This document shows positions 494 through 10,690 of a stretch of DNA of 13,170 nucleotides, one piece after another. Made by a program: the position numbers and the translations under genes. The notes beneath the pieces were generated by a model. That model worked only from the letters and a program-made list of their open reading frames with translations. It was not told the DNA's origin and did not search any database. Numbering within the stretch: the first letter of the stretch is position 1; the number at the start of each line of letters is the position of its first letter. Source of the DNA: Candidatus Woesearchaeota archaeon (GTDB taxonomy: Archaea > Nanobdellota > Nanobdellia > SCGC-AAA011-G17 > UBA489); contig JAUXTV010000079.1 of NCBI GenBank assembly GCA_030679025.1, positions 1 to 13,170 of the forward strand, in the 5' to 3' direction.

Positions 494-1954
494 ATGTCGA
501 ATGTGCCCTCAGTGATTAAACAAATTGACGAAACTACTTGGGAAATTCCTCAAACTTATAAAAAAGGAATGCTTGTTCCTGGGAGAATTATAGCGACGAA
601 GAAACTCTTTGATGCTATGGATAAAGAAGTGTTTGATCAAATCGCCAATGTTGCTATGTTACCAGGTATCCAAAAATATTCATTAGCAATGCCCGACTGT
701 CATCGAGGCTACGGCATGGCTATTGGTGGAGTTGCTGCTTTCGATGCTGAAACTGGTGTTATAAGCCCTGGATCTGTAGGATTTGATTTGAACTGCGGGA
801 TGCGATTGCTCACAACAAACTTAACTATCAAAGAAGTCCAGCCGAAATTAAAAGATTTGGTAGATCATATTTTCAAAACTGTGCCCGCTGGTGTTGGCTG
901 CAAAGGCATTGTGAAAGTGAACCATCAACAATTCGATGATATTATGACTGACGGTGTGAAATGGTGTGTAGATAATGGCTATGGCTGGAAAGAAGATATT
1001 ACCAGGTGTGAAGGCAAAGGAAAAATTGATTGGGCTGATGCTAGTAAAGTTTCTGACAAAGCGAAAAAAAGAGGCATTGAACAATTAGGCACTCTAGGTT
1101 CTGGCAATCACTATCTAGAAATTCAGGTCGTCAAAAAAGAAAACATTCACGATGCTGCACTCGCTAAGAAGTTTGGCATTACTCAAGATGGACAGATTGT
1201 TGTGATGATTCATTGTGGATCACGCGGACTCGGTCATCAATTAGCAACAGATTATTTACGCACCTTTGAAACTGCGATGCAAAAATATAAAATTACTGTA
1301 CCTGATAAAGAATTAAGTTGTGCTCCTTTTAGTTCGAATGAAGGACAGGACTATTATAAAGCAATGGCTTGTGCTGCGAATATGGCCTTCGCAAATAGAC
1401 AAGTTATTTTGCATAGAGTACGTGAAGCATTCCAACATATTTTCAAACAAACTCCTGAAGCGATGGAAATGAATTTGATTTATGATGTTGCTCATAATGT
1501 TGCTAAAGTAGAAGAACATAGAATAGATGGCAAGAAAAAGAAATTAGTAGTGCATAGAAAAGGATCTACTCGAGCATTTCCGCCAGGACATCCAGAACTG
1601 ATTCCACTCTATAAAGAAACTGGACAGCCTATTATTCTTGGTGGATCTATGGAAACAGGAAGCGCGCTTTTAGTTGGAACACAGAAAGCTATGGATGAAA
1701 CTTTTGGATCTACTGCACATGGCAGTGGAAGAACTATGAGTAGAACTGCTGCAAAAAATACTATTGACGGCAAAGAATTACAAAAAAATATGGAGAAAAA
1801 AGGCATCTATGTTCGAACGACTAGCTACAGCGGACTCGCAGAGGAAGCTGGAGCTGCATACAAAGAAATTACTGATGTGCTTGACACGTTGAACAAATCT
1901 GGCATTTCCAAATCTGTCGTACTTTTGCGCCCGATTGGAAATGTAAAAGGTTAG
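494..1954 (+). CDS. rtcB: RNA-splicing ligase RtcB
   Basis: RtcB joins RNA ends carrying a 2',3'-cyclic phosphate or 3'-phosphate to a 5'-OH, using GTP and Mn2+. In archaea it seals tRNA exons after intron removal. The active-site signatures are present: DCHRGYG (68-74), the metal-binding Asp98 and Cys101 in GFDLNCG, Asn205-His206 in LGSGNH, His240 in IHCGSRGLGH, His334 in DVAHN, HRKGSTRA (354-361), the guanylylated histidine His409 in GSTAHGSGR, and the near-terminal Lys485 in RPIGNVKG. At 486 aa it matches the normal mature length and carries no intein, unlike some archaeal homologues. The start is fixed by a leaderless TATA box. Archease, its activator, lies 1.4 kb downstream with two unknown genes between, and a tRNA with an intron, the expected type of substrate, is also in the window. 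Confidence 0.97.
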   Translation: MSNVPSVIKQIDETTWEIPQTYKKGMLVPGRIIATKKLFDAMDKEVFDQIANVAMLPGIQKYSLAMPDCHRGYGMAIGGVAAFDAETGVISPGSVGFDLNCGMRLLTTNLTIKEVQPKLKDLVDHIFKTVPAGVGCKGIVKVNHQQFDDIMTDGVKWCVDNGYGWKEDITRCEGKGKIDWADASKVSDKAKKRGIEQLGTLGSGNHYLEIQVVKKENIHDAALAKKFGITQDGQIVVMIHCGSRGLGHQLATDYLRTFETAMQKYKITVPDKELSCAPFSSNEGQDYYKAMACAANMAFANRQVILHRVREAFQHIFKQTPEAMEMNLIYDVAHNVAKVEEHRIDGKKKKLVVHRKGSTRAFPPGHPELIPLYKETGQPIILGGSMETGSALLVGTQKAMDETFGSTAHGSGRTMSRTAAKNTIDGKELQKNMEKKGIYVRTTSYSGLAEEAGAAYKEITDVLDTLNKSGISKSVVLLRPIGNVKG

Positions 1955-2875: not shown

Positions 2876-3265
2876 GTGACTGAAACTGAATTGTCTGTTG
2901 AACAACGAATAGCACAATTTTTGGTAAGCCATGATATTCTCATTGTACCTGTGAGAATTGGTCAATATGAACAACTAAATTTTTTACAACAGCCTCATGA
3001 TAGCTCTATGCGACACTTTGGTGGCGGCTTCAACTTTGGTAGCCTTACTTACGATACCACAACAGGCACTACAGAACCAATAAATCAATATACTAGGTTA
3101 GCAAGTCACCACCTTAAAGGATTTGCAAGGACAGTAATAAAACCTCTAGCAAAACTTCTTGAACAAGTTAAGGGAGATTTGCATGATGATCGTTTTCAGC
3201 CTATTCATGATGCTTTAGATAAAGTAGAGGCAAAATATCGACAGATACCATCCCCGCCAAAATAA
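2876..3265 (+). CDS. Unrecognised 129-aa protein, GTG start
   Basis: The gene starts with GTG three bases after the stop of the 286-aa gene and is almost certainly cotranscribed with it. No strong ribosome-binding site precedes it, so translation is probably coupled to the upstream gene. The family is not recognised. The N-terminus (SVEQRIAQFLVSHDILIVP) looks like a helix followed by a beta strand. The middle has a Gly-rich stretch (HFGGGFNFGS, 47-56). Residues 75-125 are likely helical and end in a Pro-rich tail. It has no signal peptide or membrane segment. The first in-frame ATG would remove about a third of the protein, so GTG is preferred. Confidence 0.65.
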   Translation: MTETELSVEQRIAQFLVSHDILIVPVRIGQYEQLNFLQQPHDSSMRHFGGGFNFGSLTYDTTTGTTEPINQYTRLASHHLKGFARTVIKPLAKLLEQVKGDLHDDRFQPIHDALDKVEAKYRQIPSPPK

Positions 3266-3343: not shown

Positions 3344-3775
3344 ATGAAACACTTTGTTTTTCTTGAAGATGTTAGCATAGCAGACATAGCTTTTGATGCT
3401 TTTGGCAAGACAGTAGAAGAACTCTTTGAACACTGTGCTGAAGCGATGTTCACGATGATGGTCAATCTTAAAACAGTAGAGCTGACAGTCAAACGTGAGA
3501 TCCATTTACGTGCTGACTCTTTGGAAAACTTATTGTATGATTTTTTATCTGAACTAGTCTATTTGAAAGACACAGAATTGCTCTTGTTCAAAACTGTGCA
3601 AGTTACCCTAGGCAAAGACGGCAAAGAGCATACGTTGTCTGCTGAACTCCAAGGAGAAACGATTGATCGAGTCAAACATGAACTAGGCAATGACGTGAAA
3701 GCGATCACTAAACATTTGTTTGCTATTACTCAAGAGAAGACATGTTACAAGGCGAGAATTGTTGTAGATATTTAA
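3344..3775 (+). CDS. Archease, activator of the RtcB ligase
   Basis: Archease speeds RtcB guanylylation and turnover. The 143-aa length is normal. Recognisable blocks are the N-terminal strand and acidic site (FLEDVSIADIAF, 6-17), the FGKTVEELFEHCAEAMFTMM helix (20-39), LLYDFLSELVYLKDTE (63-78), the KHELGNDVKAITKH block (111-124, normally H-x-x-G-x-x-V-K-A-x-T) and the terminal VVDI with Asp142. Most archeases have an (E/D)HTAD motif near the N-terminus. Here it reads EDVSIAD, so Asp14 is kept while the His-Thr are not obvious, a departure from the usual pattern. The gene has its own leaderless promoter and converges on the minus-strand antitoxin-like gene, the two stop codons overlapping by 4 bases. 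The family is clear from the overall pattern, but activity of the variant site is not proven. Confidence 0.9.
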   Translation: MKHFVFLEDVSIADIAFDAFGKTVEELFEHCAEAMFTMMVNLKTVELTVKREIHLRADSLENLLYDFLSELVYLKDTELLLFKTVQVTLGKDGKEHTLSAELQGETIDRVKHELGNDVKAITKHLFAITQEKTCYKARIVVDI

Positions 3776-4641: not shown

Positions 4642-5676
4642 ATGACAACTATTACTGTTCCACGCATGAAGCATTTACAAGATGTACCTGGTTATCAAGA
4701 GTTTGTTCAGGATTTAGAAACAACTTGTAATTTACACGACTTGCAGCCTGAAGCATTACGATGGGCAGATATTCAACCGGGACTCGTTTCCTTAGATTAT
4801 CCTCCAAATATTGTAGTAAATATTGCACCAGATACTCCTCAGTTAGCCGTAGCTTTACATCCTACTCAAGACGGTAATCCTATAACTGTTAATGCTACAT
4901 ATCATACACCTTTACTTTTACGCGATGTTGGAAGATGGGGAAGTTCACCTTTACAACGCCATCAAATAACGAGATGGAGAGGCAGATCTGATGCAGAAAC
5001 TTTTTTTACAAAAAAACAATCTTATCCTTTAGCTGAATTCTTAGAAAATCTTGTTGAAGGTATTTCTGATAGTACACCTGTAGTTGATGTTGCTGCTCTT
5101 TTTCCTATTTCACCCCAAGGAAAATATGCTACTGAATTTTGTCCTGTACTTCAATTTGACTCTTCGGGACATAGAGATTATGCAGTTAGTGTTATTATGG
5201 AGGGAGGGTTCAGTTTCTACAAATTACTAAGCAGAGGTCAATCAGTAGGAGTCCTTGATATAGATAAAGATCAAAAACAGTTTAAATGGAAAGTTGATGC
5301 TGTTCGTGATTTGTCTGACATAGATCAACTTATGTTGCCCAGTTCTGTAGGACATATGGTTCTCTTAGTACAACCTGTTGAAGAACAACGACCCCCGGGC
5401 TTGTTTAGGGATTCTGATTCTAGCAGACATACTTTTGGTAGTGATAATCCTATGAGAAGTATGAGAGGTGCAAGTATAGGTGCTGGAAGTATTTCTCAAG
5501 GATCTTCAAGTGGACAAGGAAAATTATATGGAGGCAGTCTTGCTTCTTCAAAAAGAGGTCACGCAGTCATTTATCATATAACTGCTCTTACAGTAAAACC
5601 AGATACTATTGAACAGCTTCGCACTACTGGATTAGGTCAATTACATAAAACTCTTGATACTTTTGTCCAAGAATAA
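4642..5676 (+). CDS. Unrecognised 344-aa soluble protein
   Basis: No family is recognised. Residues 1-250 look globular and mixed alpha/beta, with strands such as NIVVNIAP (56-63), AVSVIMEGGFSFYKLL (181-196) and HMVLLVQPV (238-246), and a helix LAEFLENLVEGI (130-141). A basic WGSSPLQRHQITRWRGR segment (99-115) stands out. Residues 255-306 form a Ser/Gly/Arg-rich, probably disordered linker (DSDSSRHTFG, GSISQGSSSGQG). It is followed by a last strand-helix unit (GHAVIYHITALTV, then TIEQLRTTGLGQLHKTL). There is no signal peptide or membrane helix. It forms a single-gene unit with its own leaderless promoter and a T-rich 3' tract. Its Gln-rich style recalls the 286-aa protein at 2012, but no shared motif was found. 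Confidence 0.7.
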   Translation: MTTITVPRMKHLQDVPGYQEFVQDLETTCNLHDLQPEALRWADIQPGLVSLDYPPNIVVNIAPDTPQLAVALHPTQDGNPITVNATYHTPLLLRDVGRWGSSPLQRHQITRWRGRSDAETFFTKKQSYPLAEFLENLVEGISDSTPVVDVAALFPISPQGKYATEFCPVLQFDSSGHRDYAVSVIMEGGFSFYKLLSRGQSVGVLDIDKDQKQFKWKVDAVRDLSDIDQLMLPSSVGHMVLLVQPVEEQRPPGLFRDSDSSRHTFGSDNPMRSMRGASIGAGSISQGSSSGQGKLYGGSLASSKRGHAVIYHITALTVKPDTIEQLRTTGLGQLHKTLDTFVQE

Positions 5677-5795: not shown

Positions 5796-6428
5796 ATGAT
5801 CAAATTTTTAAGAGACTTTGTCCAACGCATGGTTGATAAGCTCTTTTCACAAAAGAGACACATTAAGATGGGTCTTTATGGACCTCCTAATTCTGGTAAA
5901 ACTACACTCGCTAACCGCATTTGTAAAGACTGGTTAGGAGAAAAAATGGGTTCTGTGTCCAATATACCCCATGAAACGAGAGAAATCCAGATCAAAGAGA
6001 AAATACATATCAAACATAAGAACAAAGAATTAACTTTCAGCCTTATTGATACTCCTGGTATCGCCACTAAAATTGATTATGAAGACTTCATGAAATTTAA
6101 AATGTCTGAGAAGGAAGCAAAGAGCAGAGCTAAGGAAGCAACTAAAGGAGTTATTGATTCTATTAAATGGCTAGATGACATGGACTGTGTCGTAGTAGTT
6201 TTAGATTCCACGCAAAATCCTTATTCACAAGTGAATGTCACTATCATCGGTAATTTAGCTGCAAGAGATATTCCTGTGTTAATCGCGGGCAATAAAGTGG
6301 ATTTGAAAAAATCGAATCTCAAAAAAATTGAAAGTGCATTCCCACAGTATGATGTGGTGGGCATTTCAGCTATGAATGGAAAAAATATGGAAGAATTTTA
6401 TGAGTCTTTATTTAGGGTAATAAAATAG
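5796..6428 (+). CDS. arvA: Era-like small GTPase, ArvA type
   Basis: A 210-aa GTPase with all GTP-binding motifs: P-loop GPPNSGKT (29-36), a switch-I Thr near position 61 (HETREI), DTPG (85-88), NKVD (166-169) and SAM (191-193). An N-terminal basic amphipathic helix (MIKFLRDFVQRMVDKLF) could contact membranes. The gene order GTPase, DUF2073, zinc ribbon matches the archaeal operon called oapABC/arvABC, whose GTPase drives extracellular vesicle formation in Haloferax volcanii. The vesicle role here is carried over from that homologue. An in-frame TTG at 5769 would add nine residues, but it lies too close to the TATA-like box. The ATG at 5796 has a well-placed ribosome-binding site. A second in-frame TTG (5784) is also possible. 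The arvB ribosome-binding site overlaps this gene's stop codon. Confidence 0.88.
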   Translation: MIKFLRDFVQRMVDKLFSQKRHIKMGLYGPPNSGKTTLANRICKDWLGEKMGSVSNIPHETREIQIKEKIHIKHKNKELTFSLIDTPGIATKIDYEDFMKFKMSEKEAKSRAKEATKGVIDSIKWLDDMDCVVVVLDSTQNPYSQVNVTIIGNLAARDIPVLIAGNKVDLKKSNLKKIESAFPQYDVVGISAMNGKNMEEFYESLFRVIK

Positions 6429-6434
6429 AGGTGA
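6428..6434 (+). promoter_or_regulatory. Strong ribosome-binding site of the DUF2073 gene
   Basis: GAGGTGA is a 7-base match to the 16S anti-Shine-Dalgarno complement. It begins on the last base of the GTPase stop codon, with 12 bases between GAGG and the ATG at 6444. Confidence 0.7.
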
Positions 6435-6443
6435 AAGGGAACT

Positions 6444-6872
6444 ATGCTAAAACTTCAATTCGTGCCATACGCAGATATTGAGCACTTGGATACGAGCGAT
6501 CGTATTGATAAACTGCTTGGAATTGTCAAAGGAAATAAAATTGTCTTAATGCAAGGACGTTTACATCCTGAAGAAGAAGGACAACTTATTCAAGAAACGA
6601 TGCAACAAATTGAAGACAGTTTCCGAGGCATTGAAATCTGCACTATTTACCCTGAAGAAAAAAACTTACAACTCTTAAAACGTGTCAAAAAAGAAATGGT
6701 CAAATATATCATAGGCAATAGAGACGGTATAACTATTATTGGACCAGCCACTATTGTTCGCGAAATTAAGCGCGATCCGAATAACATGATGCTCTTGACG
6801 ATGCATACGACAACTCCTAGAACTAGAAGCGCATCTAAAAAGACTCCATCACGTTCGAAAAAACGAAGGTAA
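6444..6872 (+). CDS. arvB: DUF2073 family protein, ArvB type
   Basis: This 142-aa protein follows the small GTPase after 15 bases, the conserved position of DUF2073 proteins in archaea (annotated OapB/ArvB). Its sequence fits the family: FVPYADIEHLDTSDRIDKLL (6-25), a strand-turn-helix with KIVLMQGRLHPEEEGQLI (32-49), EICTIYP (64-70), and GNRDGITIIGPATIVREI (91-108). The last ~20 residues are a very basic, probably flexible tail with TTPRTRSASKKTPSRSKKRR-type composition. That tail could bind acidic lipid heads, nucleic acid or the acidic tail of the next protein. The biochemical role of the family is not known to me. It is thought to act with the GTPase, here strongly supported by operon structure. 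Confidence 0.85.
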   Translation: MLKLQFVPYADIEHLDTSDRIDKLLGIVKGNKIVLMQGRLHPEEEGQLIQETMQQIEDSFRGIEICTIYPEEKNLQLLKRVKKEMVKYIIGNRDGITIIGPATIVREIKRDPNNMMLLTMHTTTPRTRSASKKTPSRSKKRR

Positions 6873-6875
6873 GCA

Positions 6876-7367
6876 ATGCCCCATCAATGCGTCCGTTGCT
6901 CCAAGATGTATGATGATGGTTCTGATATTATCTTGAAGGGATGCACTTGTGGCAGCAGATTCTTTTTCTATATGAAGAAAGAAGCAATTAAAGTTGCTAG
7001 AGAACTTACTGCTCAATTGACTTTAGAAGACAAGCAACAACTTGAGCAAGACGCGATGGAATTTATTGGCGAAGAGCAAGAACCAGAACACCCAGTAGTG
7101 CTAGACTTAGAATCTATTCGCATGCTGCAACCAGGCAAATTTGAAATTGATCTGATCGACTTATTCAAAGGCAAACCTCTAGTGTATAAATTAGCAGAAG
7201 GCAAATATGTGATTGACATCGCTTCTACCTTTGGCAGAAATCTAGCTACAGACAAAGATGCTTTGGAAGAAGTTCTTGATGAAGATACAGAAGAAGTTCC
7301 TACACCTACTACTGCTGATGAAACTTCTGCAACTTCGGACGAAGACTCTGTGAAAAAAGAAAAATAA
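6876..7367 (+). CDS. arvC: Zinc-ribbon protein, ArvC type
   Basis: The 163-aa third gene of the operon starts 3 bases after the DUF2073 stop, with GAAGG 6 bases before the ATG. The N-terminus carries a zinc ribbon with CVRC (Cys5, Cys8) and CTCG (Cys23, Cys25), followed by RFFFYMKKE (28-36), the pattern of the archaeal zinc-ribbon family annotated OapC/ArvC. A helical, Glu/Gln-rich middle (residues 40-72) leads to a conserved-looking block, SIRMLQPGKFEIDLIDLFKG then YKLAEGKYVIDIASTFGR (104-121). The C-terminal ~35 residues are acidic (EEVLDEDTEEV, TSDEDS). The acidic tail contrasts with the basic tail of its operon partner, so the two may bind each other. That is inference. Confidence 0.85.
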   Translation: MPHQCVRCSKMYDDGSDIILKGCTCGSRFFFYMKKEAIKVARELTAQLTLEDKQQLEQDAMEFIGEEQEPEHPVVLDLESIRMLQPGKFEIDLIDLFKGKPLVYKLAEGKYVIDIASTFGRNLATDKDALEEVLDEDTEEVPTPTTADETSATSDEDSVKKEK

Positions 7368-7409
7368 GTTCTTCAGTATATAGTTACTTCTCAAAGACCC
7401 CTTTCTTGA

Positions 7410-7417
7410 TTTATAAA
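7410..7417 (+). promoter_or_regulatory. TATA box, leaderless promoter of the repeat-nuclease gene
   Basis: TTTATAAA is centred 25.5 bases before the ATG at 7439, separating this gene from the arv operon. Confidence 0.6.
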
Positions 7418-7438
7418 CAATACTTTCTTCTTATTTAG

Positions 7439-8515
7439 ATGTATACAGATGTTGAACAAAGAAAAATACTAGTTAGAAGCCTCATTAAAGATAATCCAAA
7501 AGCTACTTGTGCATATATCCAAAGAAAAACTGCTATTAAAATTGAACGTGTCTATATTGGTGGCATGGCGGAAGCATTTCGAGATGCTGGTGTTGAACCT
7601 CCGAGAACGTTCAAACGAAAGAACAGGGAAGAAAGAAGAGCGATAATTATTGATTATATTAAACAACATCCAAGAGCAGGTGGGCAGATCATAAGTAGAG
7701 ATACAAAAATCGGAATTTCAAGCGCTTTTAAAACTACGAAAGAAGCTTTTGATGCTGCGGGCGTTCCTTATCCACGACCAATAGATAAGCAGTTACAAGA
7801 AGAAAAGAAACAGACTATTATTGCTTATGTAAAAAAACATCCGTTGATTACTGCAACTGCACTACAGAAAAAGTTTCATACAAAATTATATAATTATTTT
7901 TCAAGTATTGATGAAATATATAAAATAGTTGGAATTAAATCTCCTAATCGTAGACTGAAAGGAAGTCATCTTATAAAAATAAAAAAACAAAAGATAGTAA
8001 TAGAGTTTATTAAAAACAATTCTACACCAACTCAAAGAGAAATAAACACAGCATGCAAGACACATGTTCAACTAATTTTTAAAAAAGGCATTTATGAAGC
8101 TTATAAAAAAGCAGGAGTAAATTTTCCTTTTGAAAGATTAAAGACATATGGTGTTGGAAAGAAAGAAATTAGAGAAAGATGGAAATATTATGAAAATATG
8201 ATTGCTGATAAATTATTACAATATGGTAAAATACAGAGATTAGTAAAGACAAAAAGAGGTTTTGCTGATATTATTTTAGAGAGAAGAAAGAAAAAAGCAA
8301 TTATAGAGGTTAAAGATTATAGATCTCATGAAATTAGCATTTCCCAAATAAAACAGCTCTATAAATATCTAGAAGACTGTAACTATACTTTAGGAATTTT
8401 AGTGTGTCCTAAGAAGCCAAAAAGAGATGCTCTTCGTATTGGAGATAAAAAAATATTTATTGTGAATGATAAGCACATTGAAGATATTCCTTACTTCATG
8501 AACAAATACGGGTAG
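7439..8515 (+). CDS. Four-repeat HTH-like protein with PD-(D/E)XK nuclease domain
   Basis: The 358-aa protein has two parts. Residues 8-57, 66-113, 124-170 and 183-230 are four tandem copies of a ~58-aa unit with the pattern (R/K)xxII..(I/V)K.hP...(~18 residues)F....EAF..AGV..P. This resembles a helix-turn-helix or homeodomain-like repeat and is probably DNA-binding. Residues 245-358 form a restriction-endonuclease-like domain: Glu252 in a helix (YYENMIADKLL), Asp277 in GFADIIL, Glu290-x-Lys292 in AIIEVKDY, then SQIKQLYKYLED and TLGILVCPK. The D-x12-E-x-K spacing and the downstream Gln helix are typical of Mrr/archaeal resolvase-like nucleases, so DNA cleavage is likely. The 3' half uses mostly AGA for arginine and is richer in A/T than neighbouring genes, which may hint at a different origin. 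It ends one base before the tRNA-Trp TATA box. Defence, homing or repair roles are all possible. Confidence 0.8.
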   Translation: MYTDVEQRKILVRSLIKDNPKATCAYIQRKTAIKIERVYIGGMAEAFRDAGVEPPRTFKRKNREERRAIIIDYIKQHPRAGGQIISRDTKIGISSAFKTTKEAFDAAGVPYPRPIDKQLQEEKKQTIIAYVKKHPLITATALQKKFHTKLYNYFSSIDEIYKIVGIKSPNRRLKGSHLIKIKKQKIVIEFIKNNSTPTQREINTACKTHVQLIFKKGIYEAYKKAGVNFPFERLKTYGVGKKEIRERWKYYENMIADKLLQYGKIQRLVKTKRGFADIILERRKKKAIIEVKDYRSHEISISQIKQLYKYLEDCNYTLGILVCPKKPKRDALRIGDKKIFIVNDKHIEDIPYFMNKYG

Positions 8516-8516
8516 A

Positions 8517-8524
8517 TTTATAAA
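8517..8524 (+). promoter_or_regulatory. TATA box of tRNA-Trp
   Basis: TTTATAAA is centred 28.5 bases before the tRNA 5' end, giving a leader of only a few bases. It begins 1 base after the nuclease stop codon. Confidence 0.6.
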
Positions 8525-8548
8525 GAATTATTGAGTCTTATTTTTATC

Positions 8549-8636
8549 GGGGATATATTTCAACCTGGTAGAAGAAGCGCCTCCAACGATTTTTTGGAGT
8601 CAGCGCTGGATGTAGGTTCAAATCCTACTATCCCCA
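8549..8636 (+). tRNA. tRNA-Trp (anticodon CCA), intron-containing
   Basis: All arms pair. The acceptor stem is GGGGATA (8549-8555) with TATCCCC (8629-8635), discriminator A8636. The D stem is TTTC/GAAG with loop AACCTGGTA. The anticodon stem is AGCGC (8576-8580) with GCGCT (8603-8607). The variable loop has four bases. The T arm is GTAGG-TTCAAAT-CCTAC (8612-8628). The anticodon loop is interrupted by a 15-base intron at 8587-8601; removing it leaves CTCCAAA with anticodon CCA (8583-8585), read as Trp. CCA is not encoded at the 3' end. The RtcB ligase encoded in this window is the enzyme expected to join the two exons. Confidence 0.95.
8587..8601 (+). other. 15-base tRNA intron with bulge-helix-bulge
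   Basis: The intron follows position 37 of the tRNA. CTCC (8581-8584) pairs with GGAG (8596-8599), a 4-bp central helix flanked by 3-base bulges AAC (8585-8587) and TCA (8600-8602). Cutting after the second base of each bulge gives these boundaries. This is the canonical substrate of the archaeal splicing endonuclease. Confidence 0.88.
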
Positions 8637-8648
8637 TTTACCATAACT

Positions 8649-8656
8649 CTTAAATA
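8649..8656 (+). promoter_or_regulatory. TATA-like box of the 186-aa exported protein
   Basis: CTTAAATA is centred about 28 bases before the ATG at 8681 and about 22 before an alternative GTG at 8675. The ATG therefore fits a near-leaderless mRNA better. Confidence 0.5.
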
Positions 8657-8680
8657 TGCAATAACCATTCTCAAGTGGTA

Positions 8681-9241
8681 ATGAAATCCATCGTCTATCT
8701 TCTGTTGCTGTTTTGTTTAGTGAGCACAGTAGTTAGCGCAGCTCCGAATAAAGTATTAGTACATGACATCAAAATTGCTAACATTATTATTAGTGAACAA
8801 TCTCTCCATTGCACTAAAGAAATCTTAGTTCTAGTAGATGTAGAAAACAAAGGAACTTATACTGAAGATGTGTATGTTGAACTAGTGAATAAACCTTTAA
8901 ATGTTCATGCATTTTCTCCTAGTCTTCAAGTGAGACCAAGAAGTCGAGAACAAATTTTGTTTCCTTTGTATCTCCAAGAAGAACCTCAAGGCAAATATAC
9001 TTTTGATGCTTACCTCTATAGTGGCAAAGAGATTCGACAAGCATTTGATTCTTTTACTTTTAGCGGCTGTAAAACTGTCCAACTTACTTCTTATATTCAA
9101 ACACAACCACCTGTGAAAATTCCTCTACAATCGTCCCCAGCTGTACAGGAAAATGATGTAGATCTTCTCTTGGTAAGCACACTTCTCATTGTTGCATTCT
9201 TGCTTCTTACTGCATCTGCAGCGCTTGTGAGATCGTTTTAG
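8681..9241 (+). CDS. Exported, C-terminally membrane-anchored beta-sandwich protein
   Basis: The 186-aa protein begins with a signal peptide (MKSIVYLLLLFCLVSTVVSA, 1-20) and ends with a transmembrane helix (about 160-183, DLLLVSTLLIVAFLLLTASA) and a short basic tail. It should sit on the outer face of the membrane. The ectodomain (about 25-140) is strand-rich with the pattern of CARDB/NEW3-like sandwiches: EILVLVDVENKGTYTEDVYV (47-66), SREQILFPLYL and GKYTFDAYLYSG. Cys44 and Cys130 could form a disulfide. A Pro/Gln-rich linker (141-156) leads to the membrane. An in-frame GTG at 8675 would add two residues, but promoter spacing favours ATG. The architecture is a small version of the S-layer-like protein that follows, but each has its own promoter. 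The exact family is uncertain. Confidence 0.75.
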   Translation: MKSIVYLLLLFCLVSTVVSAAPNKVLVHDIKIANIIISEQSLHCTKEILVLVDVENKGTYTEDVYVELVNKPLNVHAFSPSLQVRPRSREQILFPLYLQEEPQGKYTFDAYLYSGKEIRQAFDSFTFSGCKTVQLTSYIQTQPPVKIPLQSSPAVQENDVDLLLVSTLLIVAFLLLTASAALVRSF

Positions 9242-9265
9242 TTTTTTCTGTTACTACCCGAAAGG

Positions 9266-9273
9266 TTTATATA
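9266..9273 (+). promoter_or_regulatory. Strong TATA box with BRE of the S-layer-like gene
   Basis: TTTATATA preceded by CGAAAGG gives a good TATA/BRE pair. Transcription should begin near 9295, leaving an untranslated leader of about 48 bases, the longest predicted in the window. Confidence 0.65.
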
Positions 9274-9301
9274 GTAATCATAACTGTCCAATAGCAACAA
9301 A

Positions 9302-9317
9302 TCGAGTATAAACTCGA
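9302..9317 (+). promoter_or_regulatory. Hairpin in the 5' leader of the S-layer-like mRNA
   Basis: TCGAGT and ACTCGA form a 6-bp stem with a 4-base loop (ATAA), starting about 7 bases from the predicted 5' end. It may stabilise the transcript. Confidence 0.55.
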
Positions 9318-9325
9318 AAACATTT

Positions 9326-9330
9326 GGGGG
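9326..9330 (+). promoter_or_regulatory. GGGGG element 13 bases before the S-layer-like ATG
   Basis: TTGGGGG stands exactly 13 bases before the start codon, as in the NosD-like gene. GGGGG can pair with CCUCC of 16S rRNA using one G-U pair, so it may be a variant ribosome-binding site. Confidence 0.4.
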
Positions 9331-9343
9331 TTACACAGATACC

Positions 9344-10690
9344 ATGAAATCAACATTGATAACAGCACTATTATTCATATTTACGGTATGCGCAGGCTTA
9401 GTTTCTGCAGCAGCACCAGATTATACTATTATTGGAGTCGAAGTTAACGATCTTCAAGCATTTGGCGGTAGCACTACTATCCCAAATTTAGACGTTGAAC
9501 GAGGAGAAACTATCGAAATTGAAGTTACTCTCCAAGGCAATGCAACCATTCCAGGCGGTCAAGTTCCTGATGTTCGCGTTGAAGCTAGAATCGTTGGCTA
9601 TGAATTCGGCACTGTTTCCGACATCAGCGATATTTTCTCTGTTGATCAAGGTTTAGTGTACAAGAAAAGATTAACTCTCGTTATCCCTGAAGACATTGAT
9701 GCTTCTGAACTTTACACTTTACGTGTTGAAGCTTCTGACAGTCGCAATGAAGATCAAATTGAATTCACTTTAAACATCGATGAACAAAGACACTCTTTGA
9801 ACATCTTTGACATTCTTGTGAACCCAAGCTCAAATGTTGTTGCTGGACAACCTATCTTCGTAATTTCTCGTATTGAAAACTTAGGAGAATTAAAGGAAGA
9901 TGATGTTCGTGTAACTGCATCCATTCCAGAATTAGGCGTCTCTACCAGTAACTTCATTGATGAATTAATCACTGAATTACAAGAAGAGGAAGAAGAATTC
10001 AGACTAGACGAACAAAGCTCTAGACAATTAGAATTCCTTTTAAGAATTCCAGAAGATGCTCAAACTGGCGAATACACTCTTAAGGTTGATGTGTTATACA
10101 ACAGAGGCCACAGTCTTTTAACAGAAACAAGAAAAATTTTCGTTAAAGGCATGGAAAAACCTAAGGAAGTTGACACATTAATCAATATCGACAGCACTAC
10201 TAAACGTGTTAACCAAAATGAAGAAACCTCTTTCAAACTGATGTTTGCTAACATGGGCACTGAAAAAGGATTATACACTGTACAAGTTGATGGTGTAGCT
10301 CCTTGGGGCCAATACAGAGTAGAACCTGGTTTCATCACTGTTCAAGCTGATGGCACTGCTGAAGCTAATATCTTCATCAGAGCTAATGAAAATGCAGAAC
10401 CAAAGAACTATGTTTCTGTTGTTCGTGTTATGATGGGCAGAGAAATTGTCCATGAATTCAATGTGAACACAGAAGTTGTTGGCGTTGCACAGAAGACTAG
10501 CACAACCACAGTCAAGACAGTTTTAGCAGTCATCTTCATCATTTTAGTAATTGCATTGGTAGTCTTAGGATTGATCATTGCTTTTAGAAAAATGAAAGAA
10601 GACAATGAAGGCACTGAAACCATGACTAATGTTGCTGAAGGTCAGACCTATTATTATTACCCGCAATACCAGGGTAACCAAAGACGATAA
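9344..10690 (+). CDS. S-layer-like surface protein with C-terminal membrane anchor
   Basis: The 448-aa protein has a signal peptide (1-22), about three tandem beta-sandwich regions (roughly 25-145, 150-270, 275-380), a transmembrane helix (about 392-414) and a 34-residue cytoplasmic tail. The sandwiches show CARDB/NEW3-type features: IENLGELKEDDVRVTASIP, LRIPEDAQTGEYTLKVDV, and FANMGTEKGLYTVQV. This layout matches proteins annotated as putative S-layer proteins in Woesearchaeota and relatives. An acidic segment (ELITELQEEEEEF) lies in the middle region. The tail ends with YYYYPQYQGNQRR, an odd Tyr/Gln-rich stretch that should face the cytoplasm. A strong promoter, a leader hairpin, a terminator hairpin and frequent C-ending codons (TTC, AAC, ATC) suggest high expression. 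Whether it is the main lattice protein or an accessory anchor cannot be told. Confidence 0.8.
   Translation: MKSTLITALLFIFTVCAGLVSAAAPDYTIIGVEVNDLQAFGGSTTIPNLDVERGETIEIEVTLQGNATIPGGQVPDVRVEARIVGYEFGTVSDISDIFSVDQGLVYKKRLTLVIPEDIDASELYTLRVEASDSRNEDQIEFTLNIDEQRHSLNIFDILVNPSSNVVAGQPIFVISRIENLGELKEDDVRVTASIPELGVSTSNFIDELITELQEEEEEFRLDEQSSRQLEFLLRIPEDAQTGEYTLKVDVLYNRGHSLLTETRKIFVKGMEKPKEVDTLINIDSTTKRVNQNEETSFKLMFANMGTEKGLYTVQVDGVAPWGQYRVEPGFITVQADGTAEANIFIRANENAEPKNYVSVVRVMMGREIVHEFNVNTEVVGVAQKTSTTTVKTVLAVIFIILVIALVVLGLIIAFRKMKEDNEGTETMTNVAEGQTYYYYPQYQGNQRR

What the first reader, a model, noticed from the sequence alone, without database searches (positions are those of the whole stretch)
7439..8515. 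Four tandem HTH-like repeats fused to a PD-(D/E)XK nuclease beside a tRNA gene
The sequence shows four ~58-aa repeats with a shared pattern (basic start, (I/V)K..P, F....EAF..AGV..P) followed by D277, E290 and K292 of a restriction-like nuclease. An array of DNA-binding units on a cleavage domain could give long, modular site recognition. Its position abutting tRNA-Trp and its A/T-rich, AGA-rich codon use suggest possible acquisition. This is my best candidate for an undescribed system in the window.
Basis: partly seen in the sequence, partly recalled or inferred. Interest (0 to 1): 0.72.

Follow-up and report, generated by a model that had tools for sequence, protein, structure and literature searches.

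The report
Selfish nuclease gene riding tRNA-Trp
The gene codes for a probable DNA-cutting enzyme with four DNA-binding-like units that, in many tiny archaea, sits directly against the gene for the tryptophan tRNA and looks like a selfish element that copies itself into that essential gene while replacing part of it.

Summary
In detail: ORF 7439-8515 encodes four ~58-aa HTH-like repeats plus a PD-(D/E)XK nuclease (D277, E290, K292). The tRNA next door is the key. In 21 of 22 genomes with readable flanks a complete tRNA-Trp adjoins the nuclease gene or its remnant (the 22nd has a tRNA 3' half), although the gene is patchy. Nuclease-free relatives keep the same neighbours around tRNA-Trp. In 9 of 17 loci tested (not the window) a ~16-nt 5' stub of tRNA-Trp lies 46-67 nt before the start codon, so the element reads [tRNA stub]-nuclease-[whole tRNA-Trp]. 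Window and sister genome G002 share flanking proteins at 96-99% identity, but one tract (7510 to ~8603), most of the nuclease plus the tRNA's 5' part, is only ~72% identical at DNA level: replacement by recombination. A cousin family overlaps the 3' end of ahcY (4 of 4 loci), and one relative carries the repeats on a LAGLIDADG domain. Best reading: a free-standing homing element aimed at tRNA-Trp that brings its own copy of the target's 5' part, like yeast WHO elements at FBA1 but with unrelated enzyme, target and host. DNA binding, cleavage and resistance are untested.

The parts
7439..8515 (+). nuclease ORF, 358 aa: 4 HTH-like repeats + PD-(D/E)XK domain
7439..7612 (+). HTH-like repeat 1 (aa 1-58)
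   Evidence: hhalign among repeats; helices
7613..7786 (+). HTH-like repeat 2 (aa 59-116)
7787..7960 (+). HTH-like repeat 3 (aa 117-174)
7961..8137 (+). HTH-like repeat 4 (aa 175-233)
8138..8512 (+). PD-(D/E)XK nuclease domain (aa 234-358); D277 at 8267-8269, E290 at 8306-8308, K292 at 8312-8314
   Evidence: invariant residues; nearest folds McrC, Can2, AF1548, NucS/EndoMS, Hjc
8516..8525 (+). ATTTATAAAG, TATA-like, between stop and tRNA; identical in G002 and in nuclease-free G001
   Evidence: alignment; promoter function inferred
8549..8636 (+). tRNA-Trp (CCA), 88 nt, with a 15-nt intron after the anticodon (about 8588-8602)
7510..8603 (.). exchanged tract against sister genome G002: 71.9% identical over 7510-8592, last mismatch of the anticodon region at 8603; patchy at its left edge (86.8% over 7510-7600)
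6876..7367 (+). left neighbour OapC (syntenic landmark; OapB at 6444-6872)
   Evidence: Pfam; synteny
8675..9241 (+). right neighbour, 188 aa, no Pfam match
9344..10690 (+). right neighbour, 448 aa NEW3/Ig-like protein (syntenic landmark)

Best explanation
It is a free-standing homing element. The nuclease binds the tRNA-Trp gene through its HTH repeats and cuts it (inferred). The break is repaired by copying from a chromosome that carries the element; the copy brings the nuclease gene together with the donor's tRNA-Trp 5' part (exchange shown for one sister pair; cut and direction inferred). The recipient's old tRNA 5' end is left as a short stub upstream of the nuclease (stub shown in 9 of 17 loci; that it is the old end is inferred), and a whole tRNA-Trp is kept downstream. 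The incoming tRNA sequence probably no longer fits the enzyme, so the new host is immune (inferred). The nuclease gene later decays or is deleted (remnants in two genomes).
For: (1) tRNA-Trp adjoins the gene in 21 of 22 genomes with readable flanks, from nine family codes: strict script 19 of 22 (17 same-strand, 2 convergent), plus L048 by Rfam and L049 by eye, both same-strand. Script gaps for same-strand cases run from -38 to +34 nt. (2) Patchy: 7 of 61 genomes, the window's own included; 30 of 371 in the phylum, of which 13 above 50 bits; 20 of 200 in another order, of which 12 above 60 bits. (3) Occupied against empty sites: in genus g181 the same upstream gene lies before tRNA-Trp in 12 of 15 nuclease-free tRNA-Trp loci, and before stub+nuclease+tRNA in G393 and G395. 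(4) tRNA 5' stub upstream of the ORF: p<0.02 in 9 of 17 loci tested, 6 beating all 1,778 control windows, 46-67 nt before ATG (nominal combined p about 1e-13, loci not fully independent). (5) Exchange tract between window and G002: nuclease dS 0.98 against 0.12-0.20 in four flanking genes; 7380-7509 identical. (6) Decay: G001 keeps an in-frame IPYLLNRHG* where the window has IPYFMNKYG* (translated by eye); G403 has a fragment beside tRNA-Trp. (7) Cousin family convergent on the 3' end of ahcY in 4 of 4 loci, one degenerate. (8) P0197: 57% identity over 103 aa of repeats, fused to LAGLIDADG_3. (9) Active-site residues invariant.
Against: No cleavage or binding data. No recognisable stub in the window (p 0.95), G002 (0.92) or six others of the 17 (L041, L016, L017, L018, L021, L005: p 0.09-0.89); five of 22 loci were not tested. 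That the stub is the old host end is weakly supported: the G395 stub matches its own tRNA at 11/16 and 15 relatives at 10-15/16, but its downstream tRNA also matches relatives at 7-15/16, best to nuclease-free G394; for G393 the stub matches 9/16 own and 8-13/16 relatives, and its downstream tRNA 7-13/16. Exchange is shown for one genome pair, both drafts. Transfer between orders is not shown (AU p 0.33). Two loci are convergent, and G040 has only a tRNA 3' half. How the linked tRNA escapes cutting is unknown.
Confidence: 0.75

Rival explanations
1. A host-serving gene: a vertically inherited DNA-binding nuclease co-transcribed with tRNA-Trp that regulates or guards that gene, lost in many lineages.
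For: Constant pairing and often overlap with the tRNA suggest a shared transcript. Within one genus the locus is syntenic. The AU test does not reject one clade per order.
Against: dS about 1 and a mosaic inside near-identical flanks; presence in a minority of genomes; tRNA stub upstream in 9 of 17 loci; convergent tRNA in 2 loci; cousins at ahcY and a LAGLIDADG fusion.
Confidence: 0.12
2. A restriction-like defence or cargo gene that landed at a tRNA integration hotspot through another element's integrase.
For: Restriction-type nuclease fold; tRNA genes are common integration sites (general knowledge).
Against: It abuts tRNA-Trp in 21 of 22 genomes rather than varied tRNAs. No recombinase among 10 window ORFs scanned with Pfam (several smaller or unnamed ORFs, such as 2012-2872, 2876-3265 and 4642-5676, were not scanned). 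No PADLOC match for the window protein; no phage relative by tblastn and none by pattern scan of viral contigs. Integrases usually duplicate a tRNA 3' end (recalled); here a 5' stub is seen.
Confidence: 0.08
3. Chance neighbourhood or an assembly artefact.
For: Most genomes are draft assemblies; three loci were unreadable at contig ends or as fragments; the window-G002 mosaic rests on two drafts.
Against: Same pairing in 21 of 22 genomes of nine family codes, some on long contigs (G117: 1,000,545 bp; G009: 535,886 bp).
Confidence: 0.02

Closest known systems
WHO homing elements at FBA1 in yeasts (PMC7282813; outline, abstract and 12 passages seen)
   Same: Homing gene lies beside, not inside, an essential target gene; each homing event replaces one end of the target; a partial target copy remains on the other side; decayed copies; relatives at other genes.
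   Different: WHO is an intein-like endonuclease with a zinc finger acting at the 3' end of a protein gene in yeast; here HTH-like repeats + PD-(D/E)XK, a tRNA gene's 5' part, archaea. WHO cleavage and allele resistance were shown by experiment; here not.
Free-standing phage homing endonucleases, SegB type (PMC2988022: 12 passages; PMC13096335: 12 passages and section 10)
   Same: Free-standing nuclease beside tRNA genes; intronless homing with co-conversion; cleavage peaks inside tRNA genes for SegB (the older table gives the tRNA intergenic region).
   Different: SegB is GIY-YIG, in phages, beside tRNAs of many isotypes; this family is PD-(D/E)XK, in archaeal genomes, beside tRNA-Trp, and no phage relative was found.
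I-Ssp6803I, PD-(D/E)XK homing endonuclease of a tRNA-fMet group I intron (recalled; search listing only)
   Same: PD-(D/E)XK homing enzyme connected with a tRNA gene (recalled).
   Different: Intron-encoded; Rfam reported only tRNA at the loci scanned.
Mrr/McrC/NucS-type nuclease domains
   Different: Different N-terminal part and genomic setting.
Homing-endonuclease-associated repeat, PF18780 HNH_repeat
   Same: An F..EA..AG(V/L) pattern (recalled lead).
   Different: The Pfam model does not match the window protein or its genome and is not among the 21 families matched by the 42 members.

Membership tests
Free-standing homing element | Gene lies in or beside its constant target | tested here: met
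   tRNA-Trp adjacent in 21 of 22 genomes; that it is the target is inferred
Free-standing homing element | Occupied and empty versions of the same site; patchy presence | tested here: met
   G001 and genus g181; 7/61, 30/371, 20/200
Free-standing homing element | Co-conversion tract including target sequence | tested here: met
   Window vs G002, 7510 to ~8603, one pair only
Free-standing homing element | Site-specific cleavage of the element-free target, not of its own | not testable with these tools
   needs an assay
Free-standing homing element | Nuclease active-site residues present | tested here: met
   D277, E290, K292 invariant in A1 (42 rows) and A2 (16 rows)
Free-standing homing element | Horizontal spread between distant hosts | tested here: inconclusive
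   tree of 14 rows, AU p 0.33
WHO element | Intein-like endonuclease + zinc finger protein | tested here: not met
   Pfam: HTH and PD-(D/E)XK families lead; no LAGLIDADG, intein or zinc finger model among those listed
WHO element | Partial copy of the target gene at the other end of the element | tested here: met
   9 of 17 loci, not in the window
Group I intron-encoded homing endonuclease | Lies in a group I intron of its target | tested here: not met
   Rfam at gathering threshold reports only tRNA in the window and 34 sources
PF18780 HNH_repeat | Profile match to the repeat | tested here: not met
Type IV restriction (Mrr) | Mrr-type catalytic domain | tested here: met
   Mrr_cat in 32 of 42 members at E<=0.01; not for the window protein itself
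Type IV restriction (Mrr) | Restricts modified foreign DNA | not testable with these tools
   no assay
Integrase-borne tRNA island | Recombinase gene in the element | tested here: inconclusive
   none among 10 window ORFs scanned; other window ORFs and other loci not scanned

The most novel reading that the evidence does not exclude
A homing family of DPANN archaea whose unit of spread is nuclease plus a cleavage-resistant tRNA-Trp 5' part: each invasion overwrites part of the host's tRNA-Trp gene and leaves the old end as a stub, so the host comes to depend on the element's tRNA. The HTH array retargets the family (tRNA-Trp, ahcY), and the catalytic domain can be exchanged (PD-(D/E)XK or LAGLIDADG).
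Probability: 0.45. Interest if true: 0.85.

Novelty: new variant of a known kind. Interest (0 to 1): 0.74.

Why it matters
It would be a homing element that captures an essential tRNA gene by overwriting part of it, in little-studied archaea, with an HTH array that might be read as a DNA-recognition code. It would also give a direct cause for mosaic evolution of tRNA-Trp in these lineages, and one that can be tested with purified protein and short DNA.

Tried and rejected

Errors of mine: the tRNA finder had a wrong T-loop pattern and found nothing (corrected). The first stub test used two wrong tRNA starts, L017 and L049 (corrected). In one search the codon alignment of the GTPase gene failed and the 344-aa ORF gave only a 20-residue match; both rows were dropped (tblastn gave 97.3% for the GTPase). 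L114 was dropped from the g181 comparison because its hit is not a tRNA-Trp. On checking, the right edge of the exchange tract moved from ~8592 to ~8603, and the odds of the novel case were lowered from 0.50 to 0.45 because the downstream tRNAs of G393 and G395 match relatives about as well as the stubs do.

Full report

Family. The protein search gave 215 homologues, of which 120 are listed: 115 of 120 are 340-380 aa and 99 are 350-360 aa (the search admits only 0.55 to 1.75 times the query length). Most names given are Woesearchaeota, Pacearchaeota or other Nanoarchaeota; one record is labelled Paceibacterota. A two-repeat family of about 245 aa (A4) and a family that I read by eye as three repeats, nuclease and one more repeat (A3) are cousins. 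The gene is patchy: 7 of 61 genomes, the window's own included; 30 of 371 in the phylum, 13 above 50 bits; 20 of 200 in the order of G380, 12 above 60 bits.

The tRNA link. Three were set aside: L085 ends at a contig end, and L022 and L087 are fragments near contig ends (no tRNA in the 147 nt after L087). For the other 22 a script asking for a 7-bp acceptor stem, a T-arm and a [CT]TCCA motif in between found tRNA-Trp against the nuclease gene in 19, 17 same-strand and 2 convergent (G071, G117); it does not test the anticodon stem. L048 is missed for acceptor mismatches but found by Rfam; L049 is broken up by introns but its ends and CTCCA are readable; both are same-strand. G040 (L006) has only a tRNA 3' half, and no 5' half on its contig. 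L086 (G403) is a nuclease remnant. ARAGORN labels several of the intron-bearing tRNAs as other isotypes; I call them Trp from CTCCA. A tRNA-Trp-derived model gave 7 hits in the window's genome and 10 in G002; of the 6 and 6 that could be read, only the nuclease-linked one is tRNA-Trp.

Empty sites. In the window's genus the order OapC - [nuclease] - tRNA-Trp - 188-aa ORF - NEW3 protein is shared. G001 lacks the nuclease, but between OapC and the tRNA it has an in-frame IPYLLNRHG* matching the window's IPYFMNKYG* and the same ATTTATAAAG; I read this as a deletion scar, though a pre-insertion sequence is possible. In genus g181, 15 genomes without a nuclease match gave a tRNA-Trp locus; 12 have the same upstream gene, which ends 25-182 nt before the tRNA in 10 of them. 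In G393 and G395 that gene is followed by a tRNA 5' stub, a TATA-like box, the nuclease and a whole tRNA-Trp. Nuclease-free G394 has a tRNA close to that of G395 and 389 nt of other sequence between gene and tRNA; it may have lost an element or never had one.

The stub. A leave-one-out matrix of tRNA-Trp 5' ends, scanned over the 150 nt before the ORF, gives p<0.02 in 9 of 17 loci and beats all 1,778 control windows in 6; all nine start 46-67 nt before the ATG (for L004 the start at 1501 was taken; nominal Fisher combination about 1e-13, with loci and matrix not independent). The window (p 0.95), G002 (0.92) and six more show none, among them the three two-repeat loci tested; 5 of the 22 loci were not tested. 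The stubs of G395 and G393 match relatives at 10-15 and 8-13 of 16 positions, against 11 and 9 with their own downstream tRNA; the downstream tRNAs match relatives at 7-15 and 7-13. So the stub is real, but its origin as the recipient's old end is only weakly supported.

Exchange. Window and G002 share 96-99% protein identity in flanking genes (dS 0.12-0.20 in four genes), yet the nucleases are 68% identical (dS 0.98, dN 0.20). DNA identity is 95.0% over 5901-7379, 100% over 7380-7509, 86.8% over 7510-7600, 70.6% over 7601-8592; the last mismatch of the anticodon region is at 8603, after which only one (8631, in the acceptor stem) occurs in the tRNA; 8637-8760 is 91.9% and 8761-10560 97.2%. 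The tract thus holds the nuclease from codon 24-25 on and the tRNA's 5' part with its anticodon arm. Fast evolution does not explain identical first codons beside saturated later ones; recombination with a diverged copy does. A chimeric assembly is possible but would need both edges inside the locus. A tree of 14 nucleases does not show transfer between orders (AU p 0.33).

Cousins. The A3 family lies convergent on, and overlapping, the 3' end of ahcY in 4 of 4 loci (G202, G156, G104 and a degenerate copy in G072; PF05221 in all four neighbours). A further relative, L131, is beside neither target. P0197 has two repeats 57% identical to the tRNA-Trp family over 103 aa fused to LAGLIDADG_3, a homing endonuclease domain; its own neighbourhood could not be seen, since no genome searched held it whole.

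How it most likely works. Shown: constant pairing, empty sites, stub, one exchange tract, conserved active-site residues. Inferred: the repeats read tRNA-Trp DNA, the nuclease cuts it, repair copies the element with the donor tRNA 5' part, and the new tRNA sequence resists the enzyme. This is the logic demonstrated for WHO elements at FBA1 in yeast (PMC7282813, outline, abstract and passages): the unit of spread is the endonuclease plus a resistance-conferring end of the target, and a partial copy of the target remains behind. Free-standing phage enzymes show intronless homing with co-conversion (PMC2988022, passages), and SegB cuts within tRNA genes but is not tied to one isotype (PMC13096335, passages and section 10).

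Novelty. The principle (intronless homing with replacement of the target's end) is known; this combination of enzyme, target and host group was not found in the searches made (open-licence PMC only). I rate it a new variant of a known kind.

Noticed in passing
L127, L128, L129, L130 (oriented to the nuclease), near the nuclease 3' end: Cousin nuclease family overlaps the 3' end of ahcY; in G202 (L127) the ahcY C-terminus is altered (ends LSSWSEGT where L128, L129 and L130 end HYRY).
   Followed up: partly
upstream of the nuclease in L017, L019, L021, L127, L128, L129: CACTGGAC seen by eye upstream of the ORF in two-repeat tRNA-Trp and ahcY families (L129 and L128 also have a second ACTGGAC), not noticed in the upstream stretches printed for the 4-repeat loci; perhaps a regulatory site.
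   Followed up: no
P0197 (352 aa): Same HTH repeats fused to a LAGLIDADG domain; 158 of 371 genomes match P0197, in the rows listed mostly through the LAGLIDADG part.
   Followed up: partly
L071:743-856 (G001): tRNA-Trp of the nuclease-free sister has an extra insert of about 29 nt in the T-arm region besides the anticodon-loop intron.
   Followed up: no
L006 / L161 (G040): Nuclease ORF runs into a tRNA 3' half without a 5' half on the contig: decayed or split tRNA.
   Followed up: partly
L131 (G071:C41): 396-aa Mrr_cat protein with a similar repeat beside neither tRNA-Trp nor ahcY; possibly a third target.
   Followed up: no
window 494-1954 and 3344-3775: RtcB ligase and archease genes, which act in tRNA splicing (general knowledge), lie in the same window.
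   Followed up: no
ORF 3' ends of several loci: Conserved KIFIL is often coded ATATTTATA, a possible TATA box for the tRNA inside the nuclease gene.
   Followed up: partly
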